DNA from: Pisolithus tinctorius
Taxonomy: Eukaryota > Basidiomycota > Agaricomycetes > Boletales > Pisolithaceae
Direction: 5' to 3'
Assembly (NCBI GenBank): GCA_024663395.1
Contig: JANFAH010000038.1
Coordinates: 310,001 to 374,000 of the forward strand
Length of the DNA stretch: 64,000 bases
Every line of letters begins with the position of its first letter. Within the stretch, counting starts at the first letter, position 1. The notes under the pieces were generated by a model, which ran no database searches, was not told where the DNA came from, and saw only the letters and a program-made list of their open reading frames with translations. Of this stretch, positions 1,796-47,831 are shown piece after piece. The position numbers and the translations under genes are program-made.

Positions 1796-1796
1796 A

Positions 1797-3560: not shown

Positions 3561-3564
3561 TATA

Positions 3565-8305: not shown

Positions 8306-8425
8306 TATGCTGTGACAATATAAATAATACTACTGAATGGCCTGGCCATATGTTGTGATGGCTATACATGAGATTACTGACAGGCCCATCTTTATGTTTT
8401 GTCAGAGGTACATCTTACTGTCGAT
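8306..8425 (+). repeat. Satellite C, continuation after element D
   Basis: Continues the C array interrupted by element D (tgctgtgacaatataaataa onward). It ends at about 8425, where Ty3-related sequence begins. Confidence 0.8.
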
Positions 8426-9290
8426 GGGCCCATTGTAGTAGGGGAGCAGGGGGAGAGGCGAGGATGAGTCAGACTTAGTCAGCAGAGGTAGATGGAGAGA
8501 CATGCAATGTACAGTAGACACAACGAATGAACAAGGCAGGTCTTCTCCTATCTCATCATGGTGATGAGAGGGCACTTGAACCCACAAGAAGAACTGCAGA
8601 AACCTGCACCAAGAGCTGCATAGACACAGAGTACAGATATAGCAGTGATACACACATAAAACCTGTAGACCTGTATCAACCCATATCAACCTAACACACA
8701 AGACTTAAGAAAACAGCAGTGCACTGTAGCAACCACACATAATCCTGCCACCCAAATGACAACAACCAAGGGACAAATGGAGACAGTTCATGGCACATGT
8801 AATGCCTGACACAATGTCCAGATTGTTGTCACCACTGGTCACACCACTAACAGAAAGTGACATCATGCTAGAGCTGGTGAGAGACTCACCACCAGAGTAC
8901 ACATCCACAAGAGGGCTACCACCATTCAGACAATTAAGCCCAACATCTGATGATCAGCTACAGGACAACACAGCAGCAGTACACAGTGAAGAAGTTTGTG
9001 GGGTTGCAGAGGGAAACCCAGAGAGGAATCTGTAGGGAACCTCAGTAGTCTGTCAAGCTACTGAGGGACTAGGTAAAATTTACTAGTGTATGTGTGCGCT
9101 CTAACAGCTTATGTAAGCGACATGATCACATGTCTAAGTCCAAGTAAGGACAGGGGTTGTTTCACTCCAACACACAGGACCCAGTTGAACCACCTGAGCA
9201 ATAACACAACAACTAATACCACACAAATCCAGTACACTACCCCAGTACATCTCAGCACCACCACCTACCACAGCAGGGAATCAACAGACA
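8426..9290 (+). other. 5' region of Ty3 fragment, no clear gene
   Basis: An A/C-rich sequence upstream of a gag pseudogene. A short ORF at 8790-9035 has no recognised domain. A TGTAGGGAACCTCAG start at about 9030 could be the beginning of a short LTR or leader, but I find no second copy to confirm it. The left border is satellite C. Confidence 0.4.
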
Positions 9291-10410
9291 GTGAACACTA
9301 TGCCTGCTGCCACGAGATCAGCACAGAGGACAAACCCAGCACAAATTGCAATGATGATGGATCTGAAGCCATTCAGGGGGGATGAGGATGAGATGCAGGA
9401 CCCACAGACCTTCTTATGCACATTCAAGCATATCATGCAGATGGTGGCATTGACAGATGAAATGGAGAAAATCAAGGCTCTACAAGACTACCTTGCACTG
9501 CACTCAGAAGTGCAAAGGTGGTATGATGGCCTGAGCAGCTCCCAGAAAGTGATATGGACAGAGCTAGAGAAGGCATTCAATGAGCAATGGGAACCACTAC
9601 CAACAGCAGTGAAAACACAGGAGGCATACCAAGAAGAACTAACCATGCTAACACTGAAGGACAAGGAGGTAGGAACCAGAAAGGAGGTGGGAGGCACAAA
9701 GGTGTGGGTGCACATAGTATGGGCGAAGGAAGCACTACACCTGGCAAAGGCAGTGGGAGTGGAGAGAGACATAGGCCTCATTCACATCATACACAAACAA
9801 CTTCCCAAGGTCATCCAAAAATTGATGAAGAAGAAGTACATGTCCTTTGAAGACTTGGCATCAGAAGTTTGGGGACTGGATGTAGAGGAGATACAGAGGG
9901 AGAAGGAGGAACTGGACAAGAAGAAAAAGGAAGAGGACGAGAGAGAGAGGTGACTCACACAACAGCAGAAGGCATCATTGGCAGACTTCACAGCAAGGCT
10001 ACAGCACCTTACAATTGCACCTACAAACATTGCAGCACCAGCAATGACAGTTCCAAAACCAGCTTCAACAGCTCCCACTTCATGATCCAGCAAGGGAGAC
10101 AAGCACCAGCCCTGCTCACTGACATGCAGAAGGAAATCATCTGCAACAATGTCAATAAGTTCACACATCACATGGCAGACCCAGGAGGATGGAGAGCATA
10201 TGAAGCACAACTCACTGCCTGGATGCAGACATACAGTGAGGCCACAAGAGTGGCTGAGCACCTCCCATTCCCACTGTGACCAGGAACAGCAGCAGTTTGC
10301 TCAGGCGAGTGCTATAAGTGCAGAACACATGGCCACACAAGCCACAACTGCCCAATACTGCCCAGAGATAGGATGCATTTGGACCCTAGAGAAACTGCAT
10401 GGAGGGTGAT
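9291..10410 (+). pseudogene. gag: Ty3/gypsy gag (degenerate) with CCHC zinc knuckle
   Basis: A 220-codon ORF (9291-9953) has the pattern of a Retrotrans_gag capsid: an FRGDED start, then W/F-rich helices and a basic-acidic C-terminal coiled coil. The frame then breaks; the continuation lies in other frames (9869-10279). A Cys-Tyr-Lys-Cys...His...Cys zinc knuckle (CX2CX4HX4C) is at 10310-10351. Gag packages the element RNA; the knuckle binds nucleic acid. The protein is inactivated by frameshifts. It is followed by a protease fragment and then satellite C, with no RT or integrase attached. Confidence 0.75.
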
Positions 10411-10713
10411 GTGCAATCAGGCATTAGGGCCCATCAATAGAGCAATGGCAACAGATATCAGGTTGGTCATCAAAGATGAGCAGGGAAAAGAGGATGGGTT
10501 GCCATAATGGATGGAACAATGACCCCAGTAGCTCACAAATCACAAGTACAATACACAGGCCCACATGTATTGAACAATACAATTGACAACACAGTCAACA
10601 TATACACAGTGAGTGCACCAGCAGATGACACAGATTCCAAGAGCAACAAAACCATCCCATTCATACAAAACATAACAATAGACAACATAAATGGGGAATG
10701 AATATGAGTATGA

Positions 10714-11121
10714 GCCCTATTTGATGATGGCATGATGATAAACACAATGTGCACAATGGTCTTCAAAACAGTCAAACACAGGCTAAAAGGATGGATCACC
10801 TGCTCACAACCACTGAGGATGGCAAATGGCACAGTCATACCAGCAGTAGCACAATGGACAGGAATGATATGGGTAGGAGATGTCAAGACACAAGGCATGT
10901 TTGTGGTGTTTAATAGCAGAGGCAGATGGGCATTCCTGGTAGGAAAGCCACTACTAATTGTGTTCAAGGTGCAACATGACTACAATACAGACCAGGTAAC
11001 AGTGTCAGACAGAGAACACATGCTAATGCCACACAACAGATATCATGACCAAACCCATGAACAAGTCATGGGCAACAAACACAGGACCCTGGACATCAAG
11101 CAATGTGACACTGATAAATGA
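10714..11121 (+). pseudogene. Retropepsin-like protease fragment of Ty3 element
   Basis: The frame opens with Ala-Leu-Phe-Asp-Asp-Gly (10714-10731), a likely version of the retroviral aspartic protease active site (usually D-S/T-G). It continues with a WVGDV..GMFVVFNSRG..FLVGKPLL segment typical of fungal Ty3 proteases. It ends at a stop at 11121, just before satellite C, so the rest of pol is missing. The DDG in place of D-T/S-G is either a lineage variant or decay; I cannot tell which. Confidence 0.6.
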
Positions 11122-11149
11122 ACCATGGCAAGCAAAGGCCCAAATGGAC

Positions 11150-11855
11150 ACACCTGTCCACAGTAATATGTACCTCTGATGAAACATAAAGATGGGCCTG
11201 TCAGTAATCTCATGTATAGCATCACAACATATGGATGGGCCCTTCAGTAGTATGATTTATATTGTCACAACATATGGGCAGGCCTGGCCCCAGTAAGATG
11301 TACCCTGTCAAAACATAAAGATGGGCCTGTCACTAGTATCATTGAATAGAGTCACAACATATGGATGGGCCCTTCAGTAATATTATTTATATTGTCACAA
11401 CATATGGATAGGCCTGTCCACAGTAAGATGGACCTCTGACAGAAGATAAAGATGGGCCCATCAGTAATCTCATGTATAGCATCACAACATATGGACAGGC
11501 CTGTCAGTAGTATTATTTATATTGTCACAACATATGGGCAGGCGCATCCACAGTAAGATGTACCTCTGATGAAACATAAAGAGGGGCCTGTCAGTAATCT
11601 CATGTATAGCATCACAACATATGGATGGGCCCTTCAGTATTATTATGTATATTGTCACAGCATATGGGCAGGCCTGTCCACAGTAAGATGTACCTCTGAT
11701 GAAACATAAAGATGGGCCCATCAGTAATCTCATGTATAGCATCACAACATATGGACAGGCCCTTCAGTAGTATTATTTATATTTTCACAGCATATGGGCA
11801 GGCCTGGCCCCAGTAAGATGTACCCTGTTGAAACATAAAGATGGGCCCATCACTA
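11150..11855 (-). repeat. Satellite C, reverse-orientation block
   Basis: About 5.5 units of ~129 bp, reverse complement of the blocks at 6405-6728 and 8306-8425. The phrase cacaacatatgga recurs at about 11224, 11352 and 11482. It is the right-hand partner of the left C array in the large inverted structure. Confidence 0.85.
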
Positions 11856-13700
11856 ATGGATGTGGTATCCCTGGCACCCACTGAACAGCAGCTTTCAATG
11901 GACACCATGCTGGCATGAATCAGAGATGATGTGAGTGACCCAGATCTTGCAAGCTGCACCCTGGATGTATTTGGCAGTGATCAGACTATTTCCAGCCATC
12001 CACCCATGCATATTGAGTGGATGAGGAATCCCCAGCACCTGCTGAACAGTGACTTTCCATGGACACCATGTTGGCATGAATTGGAGATGATTTGAGTGAC
12101 CCAGATCACACAAGCTGCACTCTGGGTGTATCTGGCATTAATCAGACTATTTCCAGCCATCCACCCATCCACATCGAGTGGATGCAGCATCCCTGGCACC
12201 CCCTCAATAGTGGCTTGCCATGGACACCATTCCAGCATGAATTGGAGCTGATTTGAGTGACCCAGACCTCACAAGTGCACCCAGGATGTATGGCCCATGA
12301 ATCAGACTATTTCCAACCATCCACCCATCTGTATTGAGTGCATGAGGTATCCTCAGCACTCACTCAACAGTGGCTTTCCATGGACACCATTCTGGCATGA
12401 ATCAGAGCTGATTTGAGTGACCCACCTCACAAGCTGCACCTGGGATGTATGTCCCATTAATCAGACTATTGCCAGCCATCTGCCCATCTGTATTTAGCAG
12501 ATGAGGTATCCTTGGCACCCACTCAACAGTGGCTTTCCATGGACACCATTCTGGCATGAATCTGAGCTGATTTGAGTGACCCAGACCTTACCAGCTGCAC
12601 CCTTGGTGTATTTGGCATTAATCAGACTATTGCCAGCCATCCACCCATCTGTATTGAGCAGATGTGGCATCCCTGGCACCCACTCAACAGTGGCTTTCCA
12701 TGGACACCATTCTGGCATGAATCAGAGCTGATTTGAGTGACCCAGACCTCACAAGCTGCACCCAGGATGTATGTCCCATTAATCAGACTATTGTCAGCCT
12801 TCCACCCATTGGTATTGAGCGGATGCAGTATCCTCAGCATCCCCTCAACAGTGGCTTTTCATGGACACCATTCTGGCATGAATCAGAGCTGATTTCAGTG
12901 ACCCAGATCTCACAAGCTGCACCCTTGGTGTATTTGCCATTAATCAGACTATTGCCAGCCTTCTGCCCATCTGCATTGAGTGGATGTGGTATCCTCAGCA
13001 CACACTCAACAGTGGCTGTCCATGGACACCATTCTGGCATGAATCAGATCTGATCCAACCTTGCACACTGCACCCAGGATGTATATCCCATTCATCAGAC
13101 TATTGCCAGCCATCCACCCATCTGTATTGAGCAGATGTGGTATGCTTGGCACCCACTCAACAGTGGCTGTCCATGGACACCATTCTGTCATGAATCCGAG
13201 CTAATCTGAGTGACACAGTCCCCACAAGCTGCACCCAGGATGTATGTGGAGTTAATCAGACTATTGCCAACCATCTGCCCATCTGTATGGAGTGAATGTG
13301 GTATCCCCAGCACCTGCTGAACAGTGGCTTTCCATGCACACCATTCTGGCATGAATTGGAGCTGATTTGAGTGACCCAGATCTTGCAAGCTGCACCCTGG
13401 ATGTATTTGGTATTAATCAGACTATTGCCAGCCATCTGCCCATCTGCATTCAGCAGATGTGGTATCCCCAGCACCTACTGAACAGCAGCTTTCCATGGAT
13501 GCCATTCTGCCATGAATAGGACCTGATTTGAGTCATCCAGATCCCACAAGCTGCACCCTGGATGCAAGTCTCATTAATGAGGGTATTGCCAGCCATCCAC
13601 CCATTCATATTGAGCTGATGTGGTATCCCCAGCATCCACTCAACAGCAGCATGCCATGGACACCATTCCAACATGAATTGGAGCTGATTTCCATGACCCA
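11856..13700 (-). repeat. 161-bp satellite A, reverse-orientation block
   Basis: About 11.5 units, reverse complement of 3565-6404. It meets satellite C at 11855 and block B at ~13703, mirroring the left arm. The open frames it produces are satellite readings, not genes. Confidence 0.9.
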
Positions 13701-13704
13701 GATC

Positions 13705-24310: not shown

Positions 24311-26289
24311 CAAGACATCAATAGATGCAGTGTAGACTATTAGACCACTTAGAAAAAGTTTTGTTTTCCTGATGCAGCCCACTGGGGATTCTCCATGTCA
24401 TGCTGGGGATTCTCCATGTCATGTTGGAGATTCTCCATGGCCTGCTGGGGATTCTCCATGGCATGCTGGGGATTCTCCATGGCTGGCTGGGGATTCTCCA
24501 TGGCTGGCTGGGGATTCTCCATGGCTGGCTGGGGATTCTCCATGGCTGGCTGGGGATTCTCCATGGCTGGCTGGGGATTCTCCATGTCATGATGGAGATT
24601 CTCCATGGCCTGCTGGGGATTCTCCATGGCTCCTGGGTATTCTCCATGTCATGATGGAGATTCTCCATGGCTGGCTGGGGATTCTCCATATCATGATGGA
24701 GATTCTCCATGTCATGCTGGAGATTCTCCATGTCATGATGGAGATTCTCCATGTCACCTGGGGATTCTCCATGTCTGGCAGGGGATTCTCCATGTCATGA
24801 TGGGGATTCTCCATGGCTCCTGGGGATTCTCCATGTCATGATGGAGATTCTCCATGTCAGGATGGAGATTCTCCACAGCCCCTGGGGATTCTCCATGGCT
24901 GGCTGGGGATTCTCCATATCATGATGGGGATTCTCCATGGCCTTCTGGGGATTCTCCATGGCATGCTGGAGATTCTCCATGGCTCCTGTGGATTCTCCAA
25001 TCCTAATTGACATTGAGGTCCAGTGACATTTTGTGTATACACTTGTGTTTTTCTTAGTATTCTGTGGTTTTCTCACGCAATTTTCCACTTTCTGATAAGA
25101 TAAGCATACTGTCATGATTGCACAATCAGGGGCTACAACTTTCATTATGACCATATCACTCCATTGTCATTCCCTGTGGTATTAATGCAGTATGATTACA
25201 AGTAGCAGTCATCATTAGTGTTGTGTAGTGTAGACTATGCTACATTTTGGTAGTCCGCATTTTTGACTACCACTGACTGCAAAAAGTGTAGTGTCGAGAG
25301 GTAGTGGTAAGGTCACATGACAACAGATCACATGATAGGGGGTCACATGTCTTGGTCACATGACCGATGACATAATGGTCACGTGACCTGAAGGTGACCC
25401 GGGTGTGACACCATCTCGGTCACGTGATATAGTTGTCACATGACCTATGCACCGCAATCCATGGTCACGTGATAACCTGCCGCAGAGTGAGCGGCATTTG
25501 GTCATGTGACAGTAGTCACGTGATGTGGTACGTTAGGTCACAGTAAATGTCTATCACATGACAAGACTCACGTGATCCAGTGCCCTGGGTCACGGCAAAA
25601 AGGTGTCACGTGACTTCAATCATGTGATCCAGAGCTTCGGCTCACCACAAAGGTTTGTCACTATGGAGAATCCCCAGCCAGCCATGGAGAATCTCCATCA
25701 TGACATGGAGAATCCCCAGGTGATATGGAGAATCTCCATCATGATATGGAGAATCCCCAGCCAGCCATGGAGAATCTCCATCATGACATGGAGAATCCCC
25801 AGGAGCCATGGAGAATCCCCAGCAGGCCATGGAGAATCTCCATCACGACATGGAGAATCCCCAGGAGCCATGGAGAATCCCCATCATGACATGGAGAATC
25901 CCCAGCCAGACATGGAGAATCCCCAGGTGACATGGAGAATCTCCATCATGACATGGAGAATCCCCAGGAGCCATGGAGAATCCCCAGCAGGCCATGGAGA
26001 ATCTCCAACATGACATGGAGAATCCCCAGCCAGGCATGGAGAATCCCCAGCCAGACATGGAGAATCCCCAGCCAGCCATGGAGAATCCCCAGCATGCCAT
26101 GGAGAATCCCCAGCAGGCCATGGAGAATCTCCCACATGACATGGAGAATCCCCAGCAGGCCATGGAGAATCTCCAACATGACATGGAGAATCCCCAGCAT
26201 GACATGGAGAATCCCCAGTGGGCTGCATCAGGAAAACAAAACTTTTTCTAAGTGGTCTAATAGTCTACACTGCATCTATTGATGTCTTG
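24311..26289. mobile_element. Foldback-like element with 21-bp repeat arms
   Basis: Terminal inverted repeats start caagacatcaatagatgcag at 24311 and end in its complement at 26289. Each arm is a ~65-bp unique end followed by 21-bp tandem repeats (ggggattctccatggctggct and variants): left 24372-25005, right 25660-26225 in opposite orientation. The unique core is 25006-25659. This design, long inverted repeats made of short tandem repeats around a core, is that of foldback elements. The heptapeptide ORFs (MENPQPA)n are readings of the 21-bp unit. No clear target duplication was found. Confidence 0.8.
25313..25627. promoter_or_regulatory. Cluster of 14 TCACRTGA/TCATGTGA octamers
   Basis: Octamers start at 25313, 25328, 25343 (last base T), 25356, 25379, 25420, 25436, 25465, 25502, 25516, 25554, 25568, 25606 and 25620. 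The core CACGTG/CACATG is the E-box; RTCACRTG is the site of the yeast Cbf1 (CDEI) type bHLH proteins. CpGs are retained in this ~315-bp core, unlike the flanking arms. It may act as a promoter, enhancer or protein-binding array; no gene starts nearby. Confidence 0.65.
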
Positions 26290-29959: not shown

Positions 29960-31472
29960 ATGTCTTCCTGTGATAACTGTCACAGCACCCAGAGCTCACA
30001 CTCCCCCCAGCCCTCCCCACACCATTCTCACAGGGAGTCAGCCACACATGATCATGGTGAGCTCTCTGCATGTCAAGGCACACAACCTGATAGTGAGGCC
30101 CCTCACTCGCTGTCCCCCACTGCTCAGCACAGCATGCATACAGTCAGCAGTGGCCAGAAGTGTGCTCACTCCCCATCTGTTGCATCATCATGCACCTCAT
30201 CTCAAGAGCATGATGATCATCATGACAAACACCCTCAAGGACCTTTCTGGGTGTGCCACCCACAACTGCCATTTATCCAGCATCATGATTCTGGTTGCAT
30301 GACATGCAATGCTTATGCATTGCATGTCTCCCAGGGCATGGCCCTCTCCAAAGCAGGCCTCACTCCTGCAATATTCAACCTTGCAGACAAAGCTGTGCAC
30401 ATCATCCACCATTCTCCATACAACATGTGTCGTCACATCACATGCCTTGAGGATGACCTCAATGACCATGACAATGAGATTTGTCACCTACAAGACAAGA
30501 TTGACAAACTCCATCATACATGCCCAGCTCCCACATCAGTTGAGCAGGAGGCATGTGATTTCAAACACACATGAGTCATGTCCCTTGGTGGTCCTGACCA
30601 CCACATCCTTGACCAGCCTGGAGCTGGTCCCTCAACATCCCAGATGGCCCTCCCCACTGTGATGTTTGTTTCAGGGGGGAGGGTGCAGGTGAAGCCTGCT
30701 GGTTCTCATATTTTGAGGGAGCAACCCTCATCACAGCATGGATGGCCTCACCATCCTCCTATGGAGGATGTGATGATGACCAACCATGCTGTTGGCTTCC
30801 CAGATGTCCCTAGTGATGTCCAAATGACTCTGGATGAGGGTGCATGCTCTGTTCCTGCACAGGGAACAATGTTCCCTGAGTTTGATGGGACAGAATGGCC
30901 CCATCATGTGCTTAGTCTGGGCAAAGGCTCAGACAGTAAGAATAAAATCCTCTTCATGAGGATCAATGACAATCTCTATGCCTATGAGGGCAAAAAGATT
31001 GACAGTGTGAAGTGAAACCTCAGGCTGCACATTGTCCCACCAGTCCCAGTGGGCAAGAGGCCGTACGATTTGAAGGAGGCATCCTGGGGCCCATTGCCCT
31101 CTTCAACACTGTGGATGATATCTGCCAACTCTACATGAGAGCATTACAGGAGCCAGAGGATAAGGCTCCCTGCATCTGAAAGGTGCAGGACCTTATAACT
31201 TACCTCAACTTCTGGAAAAGATGCAAGTTGGGGTCAAATGAAGTCATCAACCTCACATTGAGCAAATGGAAGCCCCCTGCATGGTCTTCCAAGAAATCTC
31301 ATGAGAGGAGAGAGGCCCTCAAAGAAAAGGGGAAGGTGGCCTGACCCCAAGGGGAGGAGGAACAAGCATCTGCTGTGGGGATACCCCCACCTATGTCTGG
31401 CCCCTCTGGAGGTGCTCCAGCACTGCAGGAGTGGATAGCAGATGCTCCTTTGGGTTCGACTCCAGTGCCCGA
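29960..31472 (+). pseudogene. Retroelement-like ORF N, part 1 (unknown function)
   Basis: Two long frames: 29960-30574 (204 aa, Ser/His/Pro-rich N-terminus, then a Cys/His-containing stretch and a helix DDLNDHDNEICHLQDKIDKL) and 30578-31015 (145 aa), with further broken frames to 31472. The gene is interrupted by LTR element L (target CCGA at 31469-31472 and CCAA at 40481-40484) and resumes after 40480. I do not recognise the protein. Its 3' side leads to a purine tract and LTR at 41715, so it probably belongs to a (non-autonomous) LTR element. Confidence 0.5.
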
Positions 31473-31932
31473 TGTAGGAATAGGTAAAATAGATATACCT
31501 ATAATGGTAATAGTCAGTAATGGGCGAGTTTAGTGCTCGACCCAAAAGGGAGGTTCTCTCTGGAGAAAGAAGTGTAGTAAAAAGTAAAAAATGCGAACTA
31601 GAAAAAAGATACTTAGCTGTGCCTGTCTAATACTCTTGCCAGTCCTCCTGGCACTTTGGGTACTCCCCAAAGTAATAAATCTAACTTTGAAAACTCGCCA
31701 AAATGCGAGACTAAATCACCCTACTACTGAGGGCCTGTGACATGGATTGGTTCTTTTGGTAAACTGAACTCGTGCGAACACAGCACACGTGCTTAGTCAG
31801 CAACGCAGCTGCTCGCCACCAAGTCCAGGGGTACAAACACAAAAACAAAGGCAAGAAACAAAACAAGTCCTTCCACCCCTAAACTCCTGACCAAGACGGA
31901 TTCTCCTAGGGAACTCAAACTCGTTCCCTACA
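31473..31932 (-). repeat. 3' LTR of element L
   Basis: 460 bp; on the minus strand begins TGTAGGGAACGAG and ends CCTATTCCTACA. Same family as the LTRs at 1-440 and 5314-5774. Confidence 0.92.
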
Positions 31933-32041: not shown

Positions 32042-33110
32042 TCAAACACAACTCTTTGCCCCTAACCTCCTCACTACTCGAACATGACCCCCTTCCTTCC
32101 CAAAACATGCTCCTGATCTCGCTGAACAACCCTCTTCATCCTCAAAACCTTTCGCCCTCGAACACAACCCTTTCCACCTACAGAGCGCCACCTGGCCTCT
32201 TGAACACACACCCTGCCTCTCGAACACTCCCCTCAAGGCCCAAACCTCGAACCAAAAGATGATGGAGATAATCTCCAGGCAAGCGAACAAGTGAGTAATA
32301 AATCGAGTGCAGAGCGAGTCAATGACAGCTCTTCGAGGCACAGTCTTTGTGTGAAACAGTAACAGAGTGTAACACAGCTCAGCGGCTGGTACAGCAGATG
32401 CTGGCCCTCTACAAGGCAGCTCGAAGACGTACATATGTACCTAAAACAAACCTCGATCAGTCGTGTATTTACTATCCTTAAATGCATATGTGCTCTCGAC
32501 TACTGCTCATCCTTAAGACAATTTAGCACCAAGAAAAAAAAACAATGGAACTTGAAATCATAAGTCAGGGTGAGTAGAATCACCCGAAGGTTAGCACGAC
32601 TTGGTTGAACAATGTCGCTCGAAGCAAAACTCATTTTAAAGAAAACTATATATCAACACACTCACCAGGACCCTTGCCTTGTTCACTTGTCCCATTCCTA
32701 TTTTCACAGCCTCGACTCCCTGTGCATGTGCGCCCTTGATTTCTCATACTTCATCTGGTACTCCATCAGGTGGCCGAAGCTCTTGTGCTAAGTGTTGCTG
32801 AGCAACCTCGAGTCGCCTGTCTTCATTCACCATTATCTCGACCCTAGATACAAAGTATTTTGGTGTAGTATACATTCGAATCATAATAAAAGATATCACC
32901 TTAAGTCTGTACATTCTTGCATCTCCTTCGTTGATAGGTCTTCGACTCTGACAGGTGCAGGCACTAAGTTCACTCGACCTTAGTTGCTGGCCTTCAACCT
33001 TGCAGTCAGGCGGACAAAGTCTTGATGCTAAGTACTGATGCGCAGCTTCAAACTGTCCATCCCTGTTGATCCTTTTCACCTTCGCACTAAGGGCTCTGTA
33101 CTTCACAGTA
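32042..33110 (-). other. 3' interior of element L, unrecognised repeats
   Basis: Two diverged ~240-bp repeats near 32750-33110 encode, in one minus-strand frame (33106-32744, 120 aa), twin segments resembling INRDGQFEAAHQYLASRLCP and VNEDRRLEVAQQHLAQELRP. Another minus-strand frame at 32434-32042 (130 aa) is Cys/Arg-rich with no domain. Whether either is translated is unknown. Confidence 0.4.
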
Positions 33111-33604
33111 GAATATCCTCAAATCAAAACTGAAAAGGGCACCTTGGCATCTTCTTTTCCTTCAGATATCACTGACTGCACTTCAACTTGGTCAAGTACC
33201 TTAGACCTGTAGATTCGTGAGTAGAACATCATAAAAACAAAAGACAAGAATGAGCGCTCGGGCTCGGTGCCTGAATCCACACTGCCTCAAATGCGCTGTG
33301 TGTGACTTCGTTGTTTCAGCCAGCCTCGCCCCTCCTCAATCTTCGCATATTGCATGCCATCTCGCCTACTCGAACTCGCTTCGTCTTCTTCTCTTCCAGA
33401 CATCAGTAGCCACATGTCGATTCCTTCATGTGTCTTATAATGTTGTGTGATCTCTTGTATCCTCAACGGTCGGTGTCGTAGATCTGACCAGGTTCGTCGC
33501 TCTCGTTCTTCAGTATACCTGTGGGTACTTTGCTCAAAGCTGCTAGTGGACTCTAGTATAGCGATCACCATTTGTCGTAGGTACCTGTTTCCCCTAGAAT
33601 AACC

Positions 33605-36600
33605 AGGATGTAAGTGACACCTTCCAATTTCAAAACGAAAATTTGAGCTGTCAAGCTCAGGGTCTGCGCCCATCGTGCTTCACCTCCATTGAATGACACT
33701 TCCTATTTTGCGCAGCTGTTGATCTGCATCCAGTCCTGTCATTGTTGCTAATATCCACCATGCCACCTCCCAGCCTTCGTCATCAAACATCTCTTTTCCT
33801 TCGACACTGCACTGTAATGTCAGCATTCTTTCTCTCGTGTACTGTACCCATTCCCCCCACTCACAGTAGAGCTGTCGAATTGTCTTGTGTAGCTTCAATT
33901 TGATAGTCCGGTGTTCGTCCTTGTGTGTTGCTTTGCACTTCCACACTGCAGCCACTTGGATGTCACTCCTACCTCTTCATAGACACTGAACTTTCCTATA
34001 GTAAAGTAGCTGTAAGTGATATGACACAAAACAAAAGAGAAAGATTGAGCTGTCGAGCTCAGCGCATGAATCCTCTATGCATCTCCTCCATCGAATGACT
34101 CCTCACTGTAGCAAGGCATTCTGTATGATATATGTAATGCCTGATCTCTCCAATATATCCAACATGTCCCGCTCATCTGTGGTGTCCCCCGAATAAAGCG
34201 AAACATGGCCATGATGTCTCTGCACAATATCCAACACAGCGATGGTGTCTCCCCTTGCTAACTGCTCGACAGCGTGTTGACCTAAAATTTCGCTTTGTAC
34301 TGTAGATGCATCAGTACCTTGTAAAAACTTGTACTCCCTGAAACGACATAGCTTTAAGTAAATCACTCGAAAGAAAAAACTAAAACTTGAGCCTTCAGGC
34401 CCACTCAGCAGGATCTCAACGCTCTCTGCACGTTGCACATCTCGCTGCGACTCCAAACCTCGCCACCATGTTGCTATTTGTGCTAAGTCTTGTGTGCAAG
34501 TCCTCTGAGTTGCTTCGAATTTGCTTCCGGAGTCATTTTGTAGTCGTCGCACTGGTATCACTGCGAGTTGACACATACTCTCTTCGAAGTTGTCGTCTAC
34601 CCTTGCACCTCATCTCTCTGGGCCTTCAAGCCCAACCGGTGTGGCTTCAACACTGTTCGCATGTTGCGCATTCTGCTCCGAATCCAAATTCCTCTGTCGC
34701 ACTGCCATTTGTAGCAGTTCTTGTGTATGAGTCCGCAGAGTTGCTCCAAACGTTCCTCTTGTGACTCCTCTTGGTTTCACTTGTCGCTCCGTAAGTTGCT
34801 GTGTCCTTCTTTCTGATTTGTTGTCTATTCTATATAAATGTACCTGTAAGTAAAAAGTTATGAAACAAAAACAAAAACTTGAGTCGTTGGGCTCCATTTC
34901 CACGTTCATTGGATGTTGTATCCTCGACGATCGCCATTGACGTTCGAGCACAGATTCTTGAGTCTTGATCGCAGGGATGCTGGTTACACTTCGTCGCAGC
35001 TGTCTGCCGCCCCTAGAGTAGGATAGGTGTAAGTAATACATTCTAGAATCAAAACAAAACCCTGGGCTGTTGAGCCCAGTACCTGCGCTCATCACGCCTC
35101 GTTCCCAGTGAACAGCTGTTCCAGCCTTGCATGGCTACCAATCTGCTTCGAGCCTCATTGTCATCGTTGTCGCTGTCACTGTAGTCGCTGTCATTGTCCC
35201 TTGTACTGCGATCGTTGTCCATCGTAGACATCTGGCCTCCCTAGAATAACGAAGGTGTAAGTAAACTATCATAGGACTAAAACAGAACTTCGAGCGTTCG
35301 AGCTCGGTGGTCTTCATTGCATGTTGTTTCCTTCAGATGGCAATTCTTGCCTCGTGTCGCACTCGCTCTTGTATCCTTGATGGTCGTTGTTGTAGATTGA
35401 ACCATAGTCGTCGCCCTTGTTTCCATTGAACAGCTGCTCCAGCCTCGCATGGCCTTCGGTCTGTGTCAAGTCTTGTCATCGCTGTCATTTCTTGTATCAT
35501 GATCGCTGTTCATCGTAGATAGTTGGCCTCCCTAGAACAATGAAGATGTAAGTAATATTTCCTAGAACTAAAACAGAACTCGGAGCGTTCGCGCCCAATA
35601 ATCTCCATTGTGCATCGTTTCCTTCGGACAGTCGTTCTTGTCTTGTATAGCCTTCAGTCTGTGTCAAGCGTTGTCGTCACTGCCACTGTATTCGTCGTAC
35701 TTCCGTGCAACCTTTGATTGTAGTTCGTCATAGATTCTTGAATAGCGATCACAGGGACATCGGTCTTGCTTCGTCGCCTATACCCATTTTCCCTAGAGTA
35801 GAAACTCTGAAAGTAAAATGCTATGGAATGTAAAGGAAACCTTGGGCCTTCGAGCCCAGAACCCATGCTCGTCGTGCCCCATCTCCTTAAGACGGCTGTT
35901 CCAGCCTCGCATGGCTGTTGCTCTGAGTCCAGCGCTGTCGTTGTCCTCACTGTAACTGTCGCTGTCGCTAGATTTAAGCCTTCGGCTTGTCCTGACCATT
36001 CGCCCCACTCGTAGTATTACCGCTGTATCGTGTCGCATAGCTTCTCCTTGACAGTCCACTGTCCTTGGTAGACCGTCATAGATCCTTGAATCGCCACTGC
36101 TTGGACGTTGTTTGAGCATCGTCCCGCACATCTGCTTTTCCTAGAGTAGGATAGTTGTAAGTAAAACATCCTGAAATCGACATAAAACCTTGAGCCATAG
36201 GGCTCAGTATCTGCACTCAGCATAATCATCGACGTCGTTCCTTGTATCGTGATCATTGTCTGTAGTAGATATCCGGCTCCTCTTTCTGCCCTAGAATAGC
36301 GTAGATGTAAGTAAAACGTTTCGAAATATGAATGAACCTGTGAGCCATTGGGCTCTCCATCTGCATTCCTTGCACCCCAATTCCGTTGAGCAGCACATCC
36401 GATCTTGCTTGGCTGTCGATCTCCACTAGGTCTTGTCATCATCATTGTTTCTTGTATCGCAATGGCCTGGGTGTCGCTCGTACATCGTTGTGTATAGCTG
36501 TTTTCCCTCCATGGAATGGCACTTCTGCTCTCACACGAGCCTCGGTCCGCACTCAGTGCAACTGTCTTTGTCATTCCTTGTACCGTGATCGCTTGGACGT

Positions 36601-36900
36601 TGGTCAGTCTCCGTCGCATGTACCAGCTTTCTCCTGCATAGAATAGCTGTAAGTAAAATGTTTCGAAACTAAAACACACCTGTGAGCCATTGGGCTCTCC
36701 ATCTGGGCTCTTCGCACCCCATTTCCATCGAGTGGTGCATCCGATCTTGCCTGGCCATTGGTCCACAGTAAGTGTAACCGTCGTTGTCATTCTTTGTATC
36801 ACAATTGTTGTCCGTTGTGAATATCCGGTTTCCCTAGAGTAAGGCAGATGTAAGTAAAACATTCTGCAATCAAAACCGACCTTTGAGCTGTCGAGCTCAG
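33605..36900 (-). repeat. Array of 12 stem-loop/ACTTAC cassettes in element L
   Basis: Twelve ~70-nt cassettes recur at irregular 150-490-bp intervals. Each has GTAAGT or a near form on the plus strand (ACTTAC on minus) at 33610, 34012, 34354, 34846, 35028, 35256, 35547, 35808, 36157, 36307, 36649 and 36850. Exactly 35-36 bp further lies a 14-nt hairpin (5-bp arms, 4-nt loop), e.g. gagctgtcgagctc at 34047 and gagccattgggctc at 36342. Read on minus, hairpin, ~30 nt, ACTTACA, ~10 nt, CTAG/G resembles a short intron 3' end; it also encodes a recurring FYLxLxYSRE peptide. Segments between cassettes are also related. Confidence 0.75.
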
Positions 36901-37336
36901 ACCCTGTGCTCATCGCGCCCTGTTTCCATAGCACTGTCCTTCTCGTCTTGCCCAGCCATTGATCTGCACTAAGTAAAGTCGTCGTTGTCATCATCGCTGT
37001 CGCTCGAGTCGCTGCCATTGTCGCTTTTTCTGCTGTCGCCATCACTCGTAACTGCAGTACCTCGTGCATGGTACATCGTTTGCCCCATTCTTCATATCCT
37101 TCGGTCGCTGCGATCTTGCATAGTTGGCCTGTAATACTAGATGTGTTGGTATGTAGTACTTGAGTGTGCGCGGCCATGATGCGCAGAGCGGTCACGTGAC
37201 TCCGCTTAGTCAACATCGCAGGACTGTCTGTGCAAGTCCTAACACCGAGTGTGCGTGTTGATTCGCTCGACGAATCCTCGAATAAAACATTTATTGCTGA
37301 TACTGTGGCCACGGAATATTTCGAGTGCGAGGGCAT
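36017..37336 (-). CDS. ORF3 of element L, repeat protein of unknown function
   Basis: A 439-codon open frame on the minus strand that reads through four of the stem-loop cassettes. It contains four copies of a repeat with [EG][LP]x[GS]S..F, then FYLxLxYSRE, then QAIxIQG and SADQ.P.KIG.. segments. Similar but broken repeats continue in several frames to 33287. It overlaps the end of ORF2 by ~100 bp in another frame. No database-type domain is recognised. If the cassettes are introns, this reading is not the mature protein. Confidence 0.4.
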   Translation of the reverse strand: MPSHSKYSVATVSAINVLFEDSSSESTRTLGVRTCTDSPAMLTKRSHVTALRIMAAHTQVLHTNTSSITGQLCKIAATEGYEEWGKRCTMHEVLQLRVMATAEKATMAATRATAMMTTTTLLSADQWLGKTRRTVLWKQGAMSTGSELDSSKVGFDCRMFYLHLPYSRETGYSQRTTIVIQRMTTTVTLTVDQWPGKIGCTTRWKWGAKSPDGEPNGSQVCFSFETFYLQLFYAGESWYMRRRLTNVQAITVQGMTKTVALSADRGSCESRSAIPWRENSYTQRCTSDTQAIAIQETMMMTRPSGDRQPSKIGCAAQRNWGARNADGEPNGSQVHSYFETFYLHLRYSRAERGAGYLLQTMITIQGTTSMIMLSADTEPYGSRFYVDFRMFYLQLSYSRKSRCAGRCSNNVQAVAIQGSMTVYQGQWTVKEKLCDTIQR

Positions 37337-38198
37337 CTATCCTCGCCGCGTGCTTCAACATTTCGATTCGCAAAATTTCTTCTGGTGGCTTCCTTCGTAT
37401 GACGAGCCTCGATGGCTCCTCGACCTGAATTCTTCTCGCAATAACCTTCAACTCGATGTGATTCATGTGCTGCGGCACTCTGTGTGAGTCAATGACCTCT
37501 TTGTATGCCAACCTATCTGTTTCAGGACTGCCTGTGAGTGTTTCGAGCCCTTTGACTTCAACTCCTGTGGGCTTTGGGTGTTCTTCAAGCCTTTCGGCTT
37601 CGAATTCGAGCGGAATCTTTGACCTGAATAGGTTGTCGGTTAACTGATGTGTATTTCTGCTGACTGCAGGAACTCCGAGGCCGCTCCTTTCATTACCTCG
37701 ACCTCTTAGGTAGGACTCCTGTAGTGACACACCAGTAGCCATCAGAGAAGCTCGATACGAACAAAAAGAAAAACCCCTTTGAGTGTTGTAATTCGCTTCG
37801 AATTCGAATGGGACTTTTGTTGTGAGTGGTTCCTCCACCAATGCAGGTTCGACTCGCTCGAGTTCTACTGCTTCCTGTAACTCAGTAGTCAGTATTCTGT
37901 TCATACTCAAGGAAAACTCTTTCGTCTCAAAACTGGTCACTGCAGCTGCTTCAACGAGCCTGCCAAGGCTTCGGTCCTCACTATTTGTCTTCTCGGGTGG
38001 GCTGTGTGGCTGCGCGCTACTTGTCGAAACTAACTTTGGTACTTTCTCGCACTCCATGTACCTTGATACTTCTGTAGATCCCTGTACATTGTTCATCAGC
38101 GAGTCATGTGTAGCTGTAGGCAGAAAATACTTCGTAGATAGATGTTGCTTGTCTGAACTCGATTCTGGGTCACTTCGTGGCTCATAGTAGTCTTCCAT
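37239..38198 (-). CDS. ORF2 of element L, unknown, in frame with gag
   Basis: 319 codons, starting six bases after the gag stop and in the same reading frame. The separating codon is TGA within ERA-stop-TS, so a CGA to TGA change or stop readthrough could join the two. The product is Glu/Ser/Arg-rich with a basic C-terminal stretch (VIRRKPPEEILRIEMLKHAA). No zinc knuckle, protease, or RT motif. It may be the C-terminal part of a gag polyprotein. Confidence 0.55.
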   Translation of the reverse strand: MEDYYEPRSDPESSSDKQHLSTKYFLPTATHDSLMNNVQGSTEVSRYMECEKVPKLVSTSSAQPHSPPEKTNSEDRSLGRLVEAAAVTSFETKEFSLSMNRILTTELQEAVELERVEPALVEEPLTTKVPFEFEANYNTQRGFSFCSYRASLMATGVSLQESYLRGRGNERSGLGVPAVSRNTHQLTDNLFRSKIPLEFEAERLEEHPKPTGVEVKGLETLTGSPETDRLAYKEVIDSHRVPQHMNHIELKVIARRIQVEEPSRLVIRRKPPEEILRIEMLKHAARIDALALEIFRGHSISNKCFIRGFVERINTHTRC

Positions 38199-38204
38199 GC
38201 TTGT

Positions 38205-39842
38205 TCATGCTCGCTCCAAGCGAAATCCTTTGTGTAGTAGTCGTGTTGCTGTGTATGTTACTTGCTCCATGGGCCATGGATCGTCTGAGTGTTGCTGTCG
38301 ATCATCGCGTCGCATTTTCCAAATAATTTCGCGCCGGAATTCCTTGTTGAAGCCTTGTACATAGAGGTCTTCAAGCTCATCAGCCTCGAGTTGCTTCGAA
38401 ACCTGTAGAAACGTTGCTAAATCTAGAAAATAGAGTCTGTAGTTCATCAGTTCTTCCTCTGTATGAATTTCTCTTCTTGCTCGGCTGTCAACGAGGCTGT
38501 AAAGGTCATTCCTCGAGTACTGTTGATCCATTTTCCAGGACCCAGGATACAAACGTGCAATGGCTACCACAAATTCGGGCCAACTCAGCTGATCTTCAAT
38601 GAATTTGTACCATGAGTCCAAGACTTTGCTGCTTGCATACCAGCAAACCCATTTCGCCCATTCTTGGTCATCAAAGCAATTCTCGCACTTGCAAAGACTT
38701 CGAACCTTTCTGTGAAGTACGGGTTTACCCTCAGGTGACCGGGCTTCAAGACTGGGTGACAGGGGTTAGCCCAGGTGGCCAGAGTCATGGCCAGAAGACA
38801 GGGCTTAAGTCCGAGTGGCCAAAGTCGAGGCCGAGAGACAGGGGCCAAGTCCGGTTGGACCGGAGTCAAGGCTGGAGGTCAGGGGCCAAGTCCGGAGGAC
38901 CGGACTTAAGGCCGGGAGCGTGGGAATAAGACCGGTAGCGTGGGAAACCGACCGGTCTTGGGGTGCGCACAGGGGGAAGCCGGTCCGGGGTTGGATCTCC
39001 CTCCCTTGGTCTCAGCTTATGTGCTGTACCCTTATGCAAGCCAGGGAGAGGTCCAGGACAGGGGCCGGGGATAGCTTAAGGCTCGGCCTTAGCTATAGAG
39101 TAGTCTCGGGGTGTAGTACGGAGTTGAGGGTAATACTAAGTTGATATTCTGACTGGGGTGCTACGAAGTATGTACAGGGGTTAAATACAGGAGGCTGGTC
39201 TGGGATAATGAACATAGAGCCGGACTTGTGAATAAGCTATTAGTGAGATGATTAGCAAGACAAGGATAGCCACAGTGGCTATGCAGAGGCTAATAGCCAA
39301 AGTCCGGGTGACCGGCATAACCGGGGTCGGACACAGGATTGTACAGTAAGCAAAGTCTGATGAACAGGCTAGACTAAATATAGTACAAACAAAGGGAAAC
39401 AGACCGGAGTTATGTCCGGGTGACCCGGACATAGACCTAGGAGGACCGGGGTGGAGCAGCGCAAGGCTGGGAGGCCGAAACGGACCGGAGATAGGGGTAA
39501 AACACCGGACTTGAGTTATGCAGGCCGGAGTTGAGTTATCTAGGGCTGGGACTGGGTTTTCTAGGCTGGACTAGGACCGGACTTGACCGGAGATAGGGGC
39601 TAGGGGTCCGGACTGGGCTGAGTCCGAGTCCGAGAGTCATGGATATGACACTTTCCAAAATACCTAAAAAGGTCAGATGCATACCCCGAGAACCATGGTG
39701 CATCCTTCGAATGCCTCGGTGGCATTCCCTCGAGTTCTCTCAGCACATTCTCACGACTTCTTCGCAGAAATTCAACTATTAATTTGCCTTCGGACTTGCT
39801 TCTCGGCTCGATGGATCTTCGACTTCGACACTTGCTTGACAT
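38205..39842 (-). pseudogene. gag: gag-like gene of element L, split by solo LTR
   Basis: Begins at ATG 39842 and runs 64 codons to 39651, is interrupted by the 940-bp LTR J, then resumes at 38705 in the same frame for 166 codons to a stop at 38205. Without the insertion it is ~230 aa. The second part (SWYKFIEDQLSWPEFVVAIA.. to DLYVQGFNKEFRREIIWKM) has the capsid-like W..F..A...Y and F..GF...R patterns of fungal Ty3 Gag. Apart from the insertion the frame is intact, consistent with a recent element. Confidence 0.7.
38711..39650 (+). mobile_element. Solo LTR, family J, inside element L gag
   Basis: 940 bp from TGTGAAGTACGGG to GGATATGACA with perfect 5-bp target duplication CTTTC (38706-38710 and 39651-39655). 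Very CpG-rich (repeated ccgg/accgg words), so the youngest or least-decayed element in the window. A CpG-poor relative is at 46392-47313. Confidence 0.93.
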
Positions 39843-39999: not shown

Positions 40000-40018
40000 C
40001 CCCTTGTGGTGGGCTCCA
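40000..40018 (-). other. Primer binding site of element L
   Basis: On the minus strand, two bases after the LTR end, the sequence TGGAGCCCACCACAAGGGG begins with the TGG expected for pairing with a tRNA 3' CCA. It fixes the element orientation as minus. Which tRNA primes it cannot be told by eye. Confidence 0.65.
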
Positions 40019-40020
40019 GA

Positions 40021-40480
40021 TGTAGGAATAGGTAAAATAGATATACCTATAATGGTAATAGTCAGTAATGGGCGAGTTTAGTGCTCGACCCAAAAGGGAG
40101 GTTCTCTCTGGAGAAAGAAGTGTAGTAAAAAGTAAAAAATGCGAACTAGAAAAAAGATACTTAGCTGTGCCTGTCTAATACTCTTGCCAGTCCTCCTGGC
40201 ACTTTGGGTACTCCCCAAAGTAATAAATCTAACTTCGAAAACTCGCTGAAATGCGAGACTAAATCACCCTACTACTGAGGGCCTGTGACATGGATTGGTT
40301 CTTTTGGTAAACTGAACTCGCACAAACACAGCACACGTGCTTAGTCAGCAATGCAGCTGCTCGCCACCAAGTCCAGGGGTACAAACACAAAAACAAAGGC
40401 AAGAAACAAAACAAGTCCTTCCACCCCTAAACTCCTGACCAAGACGGATTCTCCTAGGGAACTCGAACTCGTTCCCTACA
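40021..40480 (-). repeat. 5' LTR of element L
   Basis: 460 bp, identical in length to 31473-31932 and differing at eight sites. It adjoins the primer binding site in minus sense, so it is the 5' LTR. Confidence 0.92.
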
Positions 40481-45848: not shown

Positions 45849-46391
45849 TTCTTAGTGTACTACAGTAACAGACAGTAGCTACCCACTAAGGTACTTCTGG
45901 GGTCCTATCCCAGCTATATCTGAACAGTCTGATTGTCAAACAGATTTTCCACATTGTTTTACAAACAGCTGTAACATGGGGTGATTGAGGTAAGGATTGA
46001 GATGAAGACCAGGGTGACCAGCCAGAGGTCAGAGACAGCTCAGGGGAGCTGAGAGAAGTAAGTCCAGTTGTTGCAGCTGGCTCAGGGGTTGACATGACCG
46101 GTCCAGAGTCAGGCAAAAATGAGTGGCAGGAAGGGGTCAAGAGTGAGGGAGTGGATGCATTAAGTTTTGACCACTAGGAACATAGTGTCAGGGGTAATGT
46201 AACCCAGGGGTGTGCAGAGTGCTGAGGATCTCTGGGTTACCTCTCTGCTTCAGCAGAGGTCTCCAGGTTGGGCTCTGGAGTCAGAGGAGAGGCAGCCCAA
46301 TGAGTCCCAATGGACAAGGTCATGGGTAGGGGCTCTAGAGCAGGACCTAGACATGATGAAGTGACTCGCACAAGTGTGAGTCAGAATATAC

Positions 46392-47313
46392 TGTGAAGTA
46401 CAGGGTTACCCTTGGGTGACTGGGCTTCAAGACCAGGTGACAGGGGCTAAGTCTGGTTGACCAAAGTCAAGGCCAGGAGACAGGGGCCAAATCCAGTTGG
46501 ACTGGAGTTAAGACTGGAGGTTAGGGGTTGAGTCTGGGGGACTGGACTTAAGACCAGGAGCATGGGAATAAGGCCAGTAGCATGGGAAACCAACAAGTCT
46601 TGGAGCATGCACAGGGGGAAGCCAGTCTGGGGTTGGATCTACCTCCCTTGGTCTCAGCTTATGTGCTGTACCCTTATGCAAGCCAGGGAGAGGTCTGGGA
46701 CAGGGGCTAGGGATAGCCTAAGGCTCAGCCTTAGCTATAGAGTAGACTCAAGGGGTATTACAGACTTGAGGGTAATACTAAATCGATATTCTGACTGAGG
46801 TGCTACAAAGTATGTACATGGGTGAAATACATGAGGCTGGTCCAGGGTAACAAACATAGAGCTGGACTTGTTAATAAGCTATTAGTGAGATGATTAGCAA
46901 GGTGTGGACAGCCATGGAGGCTGTGCCAAGATTAATAGTTAAAGTCTGGGTGACTGGCATAACTGGAGTTGGACACAGGTTTGTACAGTAAGCAAAAGTC
47001 AGACAAAAGGACTAGACTAAATTTAGTACAAACAATGGAAAACAGACCGAAGTTATGTCTGGGTGACCCAGACATGGACCTGGGAGGACTGGGGTGGAGT
47101 AGTGCAAGGCCAGGAGGCTGGAGTGGACCGGAGATAGGGGTAAAACACCGGACATGAGTTATCTAAGCTGGAGTTGGGTTATTCAGGACCGGATTTAGGT
47201 TTCCTAGGCCAGAGTTAGGTTTTCTAGGCCAGACTAGGACTGGACCTGACCGGAGATAGGGGCTAGGGGTCTGGACTGGACCAGGATTGAGCCCAAGAGT
47301 TGTGGATATGACA
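46392..47313 (+). mobile_element. LTR of family J, old copy
   Basis: Colinear with 38711-39650 (start tgtgaagtac, end ggatatgaca) but ~20 bp shorter, with TG/CA at most sites where the young copy has CG. No matching target duplication (flanks tatac and ctctc), so it may be a recombinant or part of a larger lost element. Confidence 0.8.
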
Positions 47314-47831
47314 CTCTCCCTCATTGTAGTAGTTCCCTTGTCTCAGTTAAGGTCCCTGTCATCCCTATCCTCTATCCCTTGTGTCAGAGGTACTGCTAAC
47401 CTGTTATACATTTATTGGCTTGCATTCTACACTGCCCCACCCTTGACCTACATCATATATAAGGCCACATAGTACTCTGATGTAATCAGTACAAATATCA
47501 ACAATAAAGTCCCCACTTCCAACTCCCTCTGAGTTCCCTCCAGAGTTTTGTCTCCACTCCTCTGAGTCTGCTCTGCCTCTGAAATACAAGGGCTGAGCTT
47601 GTGCAAGGGGGCAGTGCACTAGCTGAACCCAACACCCTCCCATCCTCCAACCTCTGACTCTGACCTCTGTCTCCAAAACTTTCCTCTGTACTCCTCCACC
47701 CCTTGTTTGTTGCATACCTTGCCACCCAGTGGTTGGATTCACTTCAGACTTTGACCCCTGTACTCCACAGCCCAACCCGCTCCTACTCTGCCCTAAGAGG
47801 AAGTCAGGGGTGTTGTGTGACTTTGACAGTA
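47314..47831 (+). repeat. LTR-like fragment related to family F
   Basis: The second half (tgcctctgaaatacaagggctgagc.., ending gactttgaca) resembles the 3' half of family F LTRs. A TATA-like catatataagg is at ~47452. The left border abuts LTR J. No partner copy is present. Confidence 0.45.

What the first reader, a model, noticed from the sequence alone, without database searches (positions are those of the whole stretch)
33605..36900. Twelve stem-loop/GTAAGT cassettes with fixed spacing and covarying stems in element L
Seen directly: twelve 14-nt hairpins (5-bp arms, 4-nt loop) at 33645, 34047, 34389, 34881, 35064, 35292, 35583, 35844, 36192, 36342, 36684 and 36885, each 35-36 bp from a GTAAGT-like word. 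The stems change on both sides together: gagct/agctc, gagcc/ggctc, gggct/agccc. Ten of twelve keep the outer pairs. The distance is constant although cassette spacing varies from 150 to 490 bp. On the minus strand the cassette looks like the 3' part of a short intron (ACTTACA then CTAG/GG). A family of repeated introns or structured RNA modules inside one LTR element would be unusual, because spliced introns should be lost through the RNA intermediate. An alternative is a peptide repeat, since the frame FYLxLxYSRE is also kept.
Basis: partly seen in the sequence, partly recalled or inferred. Interest (0 to 1): 0.85.

Follow-up and report, generated by a model that had tools for sequence, protein, structure and literature searches.

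The report
Intron-like modules in a fungal retrotransposon
A mobile genetic element in a fungus carries about a dozen repeated, readable intron-like segments inside one giant gene, and sister copies of the element have lost such segments at exactly the predicted end, which suggests that they are sometimes cut out of its RNA.

Summary
In detail: twelve 14-nt stem-loops lie at the stated places, each at a fixed distance from a GTAAGT-like word. A weaker thirteenth module lies at 33194-33271. The sense strand is minus. All 11 spacings are multiples of three, because the modules sit in one long frame of an apparently non-autonomous, gag-type LTR element (LTRs 31467-31932 and 40015-40480, 98% identical). 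At least 150 genome places match its gag-like part. Some copies keep one open frame of 1,600-2,000 aa; the two read whole have 8 and 10 modules and a captured dehydrogenase fragment. The window copy is broken.

The modules are more than a peptide repeat. On a tree of 168 units, synonymous positions of the stem, of TACTTA and of TCT before AG are nearly frozen (1-8 changes; third-position mean 24). CTYAC-13 nt-YAG resembles host 3' splice sites, and avoiding a purine in CTNAC avoids an in-frame stop. Of 14 deletions classed as removing a module, 13 end exactly at an acceptor AG; only 4 are GT-AG.

Best reading: optional, exitron-like introns with a good acceptor and a weak donor. Splicing itself is not shown, and stem covariation is clear at only one pair.

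The parts
31467..31932 (-). 3' LTR of the element
   Evidence: 98.07% identical to the 5' LTR over 465 nt
40015..40480 (-). 5' LTR; starts TGTAGGG and is followed by a possible tRNA-primer site TGGAGCCCACCAC (reading of the site from general knowledge, not tested)
38205..38765 (-). part of the gag-like frame, interrupted upstream by a nested insertion
   Evidence: relatives found only in Pisolithus (6 proteins)
37239..38204 (-). next piece of the same gag-like frame
32746..37336 (-). long decayed frame carrying the modules: 11 in-frame stops against 76 and 68 in the other two minus frames
36827..36904 (-). module 1 (stem 36885-36898)
36626..36703 (-). module 2 (stem 36684-36697)
36508..36509 (-). 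junction of a unit that lacks its module: 90-nt loss ending at the acceptor AG, shared with L014, L015 and L016
   Evidence: cluster represented by L014
36284..36361 (-). module 3 (stem 36342-36355)
36134..36211 (-). module 4 (stem 36192-36205)
35786..35863 (-). module 5 (stem 35844-35857)
35525..35602 (-). module 6 (stem 35583-35596)
35234..35311 (-). module 7 (stem 35292-35305)
35006..35083 (-). module 8 (stem 35064-35077)
34823..34900 (-). module 9 (stem 34881-34894)
34331..34408 (-). module 10 (stem 34389-34402)
34097..34297 (-). remnant of the captured dehydrogenase (3Beta_HSD-like) fragment
   Evidence: match G000:C38:344097-344297; family of the intact copy
33989..34066 (-). module 11 (stem 34047-34060)
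33587..33664 (-). module 12 (stem 33645-33658)
33194..33271 (-). weaker thirteenth module
   Evidence: E 4.3e-8; also in family D1

Best explanation
The twelve cassettes are exitron-like modules in the giant open frame of a gag-type LTR retrotransposon that appears to lack its own polymerase. Read on the minus strand, each has a short conserved dyad (GRGC-N6-GCYC, able to form a small stem), in most units a weak GT donor 16-18 nt after the start of the dyad, a T-rich stretch, a branch-like CTYAC, and an acceptor YAG whose G lies 17 nt after the branch A. The module must also stay readable: a purine in CTNAC would make an in-frame TAA or TGA, and only T or C is seen there. Most of the time the segment would be retained and translated in the full-length RNA, which also serves as the genome. 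Occasionally a segment is removed from the RNA, the shortened RNA is reverse transcribed, and a daughter copy lacks that module. Shown: the frame, the nucleotide-level constraint, and the exact 3' edge of the losses. Inferred: that the spliceosome does it, and that retention has a function.
For: Frame: 11 of 11 spacings in the window are multiples of three. Of 149 places matching the dehydrogenase-like part, 10 lie in open frames of 1,600 aa or more (two pairs look like one locus twice, and one of the 10 has two TGA inside the match). Constraint: on a tree of 168 units the mean third-position count is 24 changes, but the two mutually paired third positions of the stem have 3 and 4, the synonymous positions of TACTTA have 4, 1 and 2, and the last base of TCT has 8. 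Leu inside TACTTA is TTA in 171 of 172 Leu codons among 185 units, against 33 of 255 Leu codons elsewhere in two intact frames. Arg at the acceptor is AGR in 167 of 167, although CGN makes up 241 of 391 Arg codons elsewhere. CTYAC and YAG are each present in 91% of 185 units, both in 84%; a GT lies at offset 16, 17 or 18 in 164 of 185. Host introns inferred from conserved genes are 45-71 nt, 16 of 24 with CTNAY near the 3' end. Losses: of 14 deletion junctions classed as removing a module, 13 have the 3' edge exactly at an acceptor AG (offset 65, or a second AG at 70); AG is at the 3' edge in 28 of 72 other deletions (Fisher p 2e-4), and no uniform placement in 200,000 reached 13. Four of the 13 start at the predicted donor region (offsets 14-19, ties included), three of them compatible with GT-AG. 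In L023 two neighbouring GT-AG losses of 47 and 70 nt together restore the frame.
Against: Nine of the 13 acceptor-edge losses are not GT-AG when compared with intact relatives, and seven have no GT at the 5' edge at all. In three of these the left flank matches an intact relative at 96-98%, so the lack of GT is not easily a later mutation. The donor is weak: T at +3 in most units, while 23 of 24 inferred host introns have a purine there. No GTRAGT occurs in the sense strand of two intact frames. The predicted excised length, 47-49 nt (54 with the second AG), is only sometimes a multiple of three. There are no RNA data. The host-intron set came from a script that rewarded GTRNGT and CTNAY, so its consensus is partly circular; the purine form of CTNAY is in 10 of the 16 with a site. 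Some of the 13 junctions may be one event seen twice (L034/L015 clearly; L014/L049 possibly).
Confidence: 0.5

Rival explanations
1. Acceptor-edge losses come from reverse-transcriptase jumps, not from ligation of exons. A processing event or an RNA 5' end at the module AG leaves a 3' fragment; reverse transcriptase runs off there and re-lands at variable upstream places, and mostly in-frame results survive.
For: Fixed 3' edge with variable 5' edges (-29 to about +18); 11 of 13 losses are multiples of three, like 80 of 86 deletions overall. Nine of 13 are not GT-AG.
Against: Three of the four losses that start at the predicted donor, and one that starts at -5, are compatible with GT-AG. It still needs something that recognises the AG.
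Confidence: 0.2
2. A peptide repeat only: the array encodes a repeated protein segment (E[LP][DN][GS]S..FYLHLPYSRE) of a gag-linked protein, and the nucleotide pattern is its by-product.
For: Frame and spacing are kept; intact frames of up to 1,998 aa; the core is conserved as peptide; dN/dS 0.54-0.80 in the array, below 1.
Against: Change counts at the three codon positions are nearly equal (814, 822, 891). The frozen third positions hold across different amino acids (TAC/CAC/TGC; GGC/AGC/CGC/GAC; GAG/GGG/AAG/AGG), while neighbouring third positions vary freely. It does not predict the exact edge of losses.
Confidence: 0.15
3. A protein-binding or packaging site: the dyad GRGC-N6-GCYC with TACTTAC is bound by a dimeric protein (DNA) or by Gag (RNA), repeated to raise avidity.
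For: Dyad letters conserved, loop letters free except one A; pair 2 covaries.
Against: Does not explain the CTYAC-YAG spacing or the AG edge of losses; RNAalifold finds no consensus stem.
Confidence: 0.1
4. Antisense splice donors: GTRAGTA on the window's + strand is a real 5' splice site of an antisense transcript.
For: GTRAGT at this place on the antisense strand in 86% of 185 units.
Against: The base before GT is T, not G, in about 85% of units; + frames hold 111-127 stops in 8 kb; deletions compatible with CT-AC, the antisense signature, are 1 of 86 against 7 of 86 for GT-AG.
Confidence: 0.05

Closest known systems
[quoted passage not shown] PMC4484396, passages read)
   Same: Intron signals inside an open frame, no stop when retained, weaker splice sites.
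   Different: Here about a dozen related copies in one mobile element that passes through RNA at each generation; splicing not yet observed.
Optional splicing in plant LTR elements: BARE (PMC3735527, abstract and outline read) and EVD shGAG (PMC8892269, passages read)
   Same: LTR element with an unspliced long RNA and a spliced second product.
   Different: Those describe a spliced RNA for Gag; here many short in-frame modules lie downstream of the gag-like region.
Introner-like elements in fungi (PMC4457414, passages read)
   Same: Repeated short introns with shared sequence in a fungus.
   Different: [quoted passage not shown] here the modules multiply with the units of one retrotransposon and are retained as coding sequence.
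TR-GAG type non-autonomous LTR elements (search listing only; definition recalled)
   Same: Two LTRs, a gag-like frame, no polymerase found.
   Different: Extra frame of about 4 kb with a module array and a captured dehydrogenase fragment; gag assignment not confirmed by any profile.

Membership tests
Exitron | inside a protein-coding frame, no stop when retained | tested here: met
   L023 and L028 have single frames of 1,954 and 1,722 aa across their modules; many other copies, the window included, have decayed
Exitron | branch site and 3' splice site like those of the host | tested here: met
   CTYAC and YAG both in 84% of 185 units; 16 of 24 inferred host introns have CTNAY near the 3' end, two of them CTTAC (partly circular)
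Exitron | usable 5' splice site | tested here: inconclusive
   GT at offsets 16-18 in 164 of 185 but T at +3 in most; 4 of 14 module losses are compatible with GT-AG
Exitron | spliced RNA seen | not testable with these tools
   no RNA reads available
Structured RNA family with covarying stem | several independently covarying pairs and a consensus fold | tested here: not met
   one pair covaries clearly, RNAalifold predicts none; no Rfam family at threshold
Introner-like element | near-identical introns in many unrelated genes | not tested
TR-GAG type LTR element | paired LTRs | tested here: met
   LTR pairs of about 470 nt also in 8 of 22 other loci examined, several of which may be cut too short to hold both
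TR-GAG type LTR element | gag domain | tested here: inconclusive
   no Pfam or NCBIfam match for the N-terminal 600 aa of L023; placed by position after the 5' LTR and recalled resemblance
TR-GAG type LTR element | no reverse transcriptase or integrase | tested here: met
   at E up to 1 only 3Beta_HSD, Epimerase and NAD_binding_10 match the two intact frames; frames outside the giant ORF were not all scanned

The most novel reading that the evidence does not exclude
An LTR retrotransposon family that keeps an array of about a dozen optional introns through cycles of reverse transcription, by making each intron fully readable (in frame, stop-free, branch site without the purine that would make a stop), so that the unspliced genome RNA is one giant message while splicing yields many shorter products and, now and then, heritable intron loss.
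Probability: 0.35. Interest if true: 0.85.

Novelty: new variant of a known kind. Interest (0 to 1): 0.6.

Why it matters
Introns should vanish from elements that copy themselves through RNA. A family that carries a dozen intron-like modules, keeps them readable and leaves a trail of exact losses would give a natural record of how often splicing precedes reverse transcription, and a case of exitron evolution with many replicates in one genome. In the basidiomycete Cryptococcus neoformans, stalled spliceosomes are reported to trigger siRNA production (passages of PMC6643885, citing an earlier paper), so modules with a weak donor and a good acceptor may bear on genome defence as well.

Tried and rejected
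Antisense introns on the + strand: rejected as the main reading (stops in all + frames; 1 of 86 deletions compatible with CT-AC). A sense intron with a strong donor: not found (no GTRAGT in the sense strand of two intact frames). Known RNA families: none at threshold. Known protein domains in the array or the gag-like part: none. A first deletion scan with stricter thresholds found 30 junctions, 2 with GT-AG and none with CT-AC. Relaxed scans are the ones used: searches (23 copies, 57 junctions; 4 mainly GT-AG, 1 mainly CT-AC; 27 copies, 86 junctions), which takes the shortest near-best comparison of each junction. A peptide profile for units lacking modules found one case (one search failed on a command error); a nucleotide profile replaced it, whose list contains false positives. 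One search looked only for the sequence after offset 65, so it is biased; searches do not share that bias. A possible 48-nt loss seen by eye at L023:6099 is not in the scan and is not counted. L033:3628 (87 nt) appears but falls below the identity cut and is not counted among the 13.

Full report
What is there. The strand that matters is the minus strand. There the cassettes belong to an LTR element with LTRs at 31467-31932 and 40015-40480, 98% identical. The minus frame from 37336 down to 32746 carries 11 stops, against 76 and 68 in the other two minus frames. All 11 distances between hairpins are multiples of three, and so are 162 of 184 distances in 20 other loci; one locus, L021, accounts for 7 of the 22 exceptions.

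The family. The window lies in a 92.5-Mb genome of 221 contigs. A 351-nt piece of the array has at least 86 matches (194 candidates, 40 scored). The gag-like part has at least 150 (742 candidates, 150 scored, 60-100% identity). The captured dehydrogenase-like part has 149 matches, some of which, such as seven identical hits at 49%, seem to belong to other sequences; 10 of the 149 lie in open frames of 1,600 aa or more, two pairs of them perhaps the same locus on two contigs, and one with two TGA inside the match. Relatives of the array protein were found only in Pisolithus tinctorius (2 hits, 7,993 candidates scored), and those of the gag-like part only in P. tinctorius and P. orientalis (6 hits), so the host is probably a Pisolithus or close kin. 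Copy L023 has one frame of 1,954 aa and L028 one of 1,722 aa. From the N-terminus this frame has a gag-like region (no profile match; assigned by position and recalled resemblance), the array, and a fragment related to sterol-4-alpha-carboxylate 3-dehydrogenase (3Beta_HSD E 1.9e-14; solved structure 6jkg E 2.4e-16). No polymerase was found in these frames. Reverse transcriptases are abundant in the genome (2,198 candidates, 150 scored), so the element presumably moves in trans; I did not test every copy for a nearby polymerase.

Peptide or nucleotide? Between copies L023, L028, L033 and L034 the gag-like region is under purifying selection (dN/dS 0.28-0.46 in six pairs), whereas the array gives 0.54-0.80 with nearly equal differences at the three codon positions (homology of units between copies is uncertain). 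On a tree of 168 units, taken from 21 loci of which 20 contributed distinct units, the three codon positions have 814, 822 and 891 changes. Against this loose background some synonymous positions are almost frozen. The third-position mean is 24 changes. The stem's two mutually paired third positions have 3 and 4, TAC has 4, TTA has 1 (first position) and 2 (third), and the last base of TCT has 8. The loop's third positions have 32 and 46, and the third position of another conserved Tyr nearby has 21. The same base is kept under different amino acids: TAC, CAC and TGC; TTA and TCA; GGC, AGC, CGC and GAC; GAG, GGG, AAG and AGG. Among 185 units Leu at this site is TTA in 171 of 172, against 33 of 255 Leu codons elsewhere in the two intact frames; Arg at the acceptor is AGR in 167 of 167, against 150 of 391 elsewhere. 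The units were collected by a peptide profile, which does not select synonymous codons, although the loci were collected by DNA similarity to two units of the window. This is constraint on the nucleic acid, not only on the peptide.

What the constrained letters look like. In the sense strand they read: dyad GRGC-N6-GCYC; GT at offset 16, 17 or 18 in 164 of 185 units; a T-rich stretch; TACTYAC; 13 nt; YAG. CTYAC and YAG are each present in 91% of 185 units and both in 84%. Twenty-four host introns inferred from actin, TCP1 and tubulin genes (some near-duplicates) are 45-71 nt long; 16 of 24 have CTNAY near the 3' end, 10 of these with a purine and two with CTTAC. The script rewarded such signals, so this consensus is partly circular. 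In the module's frame a purine in CTNAC gives TAA or TGA, and only T (173 of 185) and C (12 of 185) are seen. The donor is weak, most often GTTTGT, GTTTTG, GTTCTG, GTTTTT or GTTCGT.

Exact losses. If the modules are sometimes spliced from the RNA that is then reverse transcribed, daughter copies should lack them at exact edges. In an all-against-all comparison of 27 loci (window, L013-L034, L049-L052; some near-duplicates, some partial), 86 distinct deletion junctions of 30-400 nt were found; 80 of 86 lengths are multiples of three, 7 are compatible with GT-AG and 1 with CT-AC. Fourteen were classed as removing the module. In 13 of them the 3' edge is exactly at the acceptor AG (offset 65) or at a second AG five bases on, allowing for ties in placement; the fourteenth joins two units at their common TTTAC. 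Among 72 other junctions 28 have AG at the 3' edge (Fisher p 2e-4). Four of the 13 begin at the predicted donor region, three of them compatible with GT-AG. One more, in L023, is GT-AG with a donor at -5. In L023 the losses of 47 and 70 nt are neighbours, neither is a multiple of three, and their sum of 117 restores the giant frame, as expected if both were removed from one RNA. The window itself shows one such loss, at 36508/36509, shared with L014, L015 and L016. Two pairs among the 13 may be single events (L015 with L034; L014 with L049).

Results against. Nine of the 13 losses are not GT-AG when compared with intact relatives, and seven have no GT at the 5' edge; in three the left flank is 96-98% identical to the intact relative. 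Canonical splicing does not make those; a reverse transcriptase that runs off at a cut or an RNA end at the AG and re-lands upstream would. Either way the AG looks like a processing point of the sense RNA. Stem covariation is limited: one pair of five, 5.0 joint changes on the tree against 0.55 expected, with one other column pair at the same distance scoring slightly higher, and no consensus fold by RNAalifold.

Comparison with what is known. Exitrons (PMC4484396, passages) share the readable-intron property. BARE (PMC3735527, abstract and outline) and EVD (PMC8892269, passages) show that LTR elements can use optional splicing for Gag. Introner-like elements (PMC4457414, passages) are repeated fungal introns, but in unrelated genes. 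The Pisolithus genome paper (PMC10066745, passages on transposable elements) reports LTR elements among the main classes; the passages that I saw describe no such module. Paper searches on Pisolithus with retrotransposon (15 of 31 listed), exitron with transposable element (8 of 9 listed), LTR element with splicing terms (9 of 9) and LTR element with intron loss (8 of 9) listed no title that describes an array of this kind; that is a statement about these listings only.

Verdict. The modules are intron-like, readable and constrained at the nucleotide level, with a heritable trail of exact losses; splicing remains to be shown.

Noticed in passing
window 38766-39656 and 46391-47319: A nested insertion of about 0.9 kb splits the gag-like frame; pieces of a second copy of the same repeat (76-86% identical) lie at 46391-47319.
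   Followed up: partly
L023 aa 1546-1671; window 34097-34297: Captured fragment related to sterol-4-alpha-carboxylate 3-dehydrogenase, present in many copies; the host gene it came from was not identified.
   Followed up: partly
window 446-13702: Arrays of a 161-nt satellite (and 130-nt and 43-nt units) at several places in the window.
   Followed up: no
window 24382-24999 and 25663-26218: Arrays of a 21-nt unit around GGGGATTCTCCAT and its reverse complement, in opposite orientation less than 1 kb apart.
   Followed up: no
window 63093-63587: 129-nt tandem repeats (94% matches) that read like WD40 repeats (recalled, not tested).
   Followed up: no
window 40480 and 31467: By eye, no matching target-site duplication and no purine-rich tract before the 3' LTR.
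   Followed up: partly
G000:C149/C83; C17/C44/C115/C197: Matches with identical scores on different contigs suggest that the assembly holds both haplotypes or duplicates, so copy numbers may be counted twice.
   Followed up: no
G000, seven places with identical scores (query 20-101, 49%): A second repeated sequence with a dehydrogenase-like fragment, perhaps another mobile element.
   Followed up: no
many copies: Most in-frame stops listed in decayed copies are TGA, as expected from CGA to TGA change in methylated DNA (inference).
   Followed up: no
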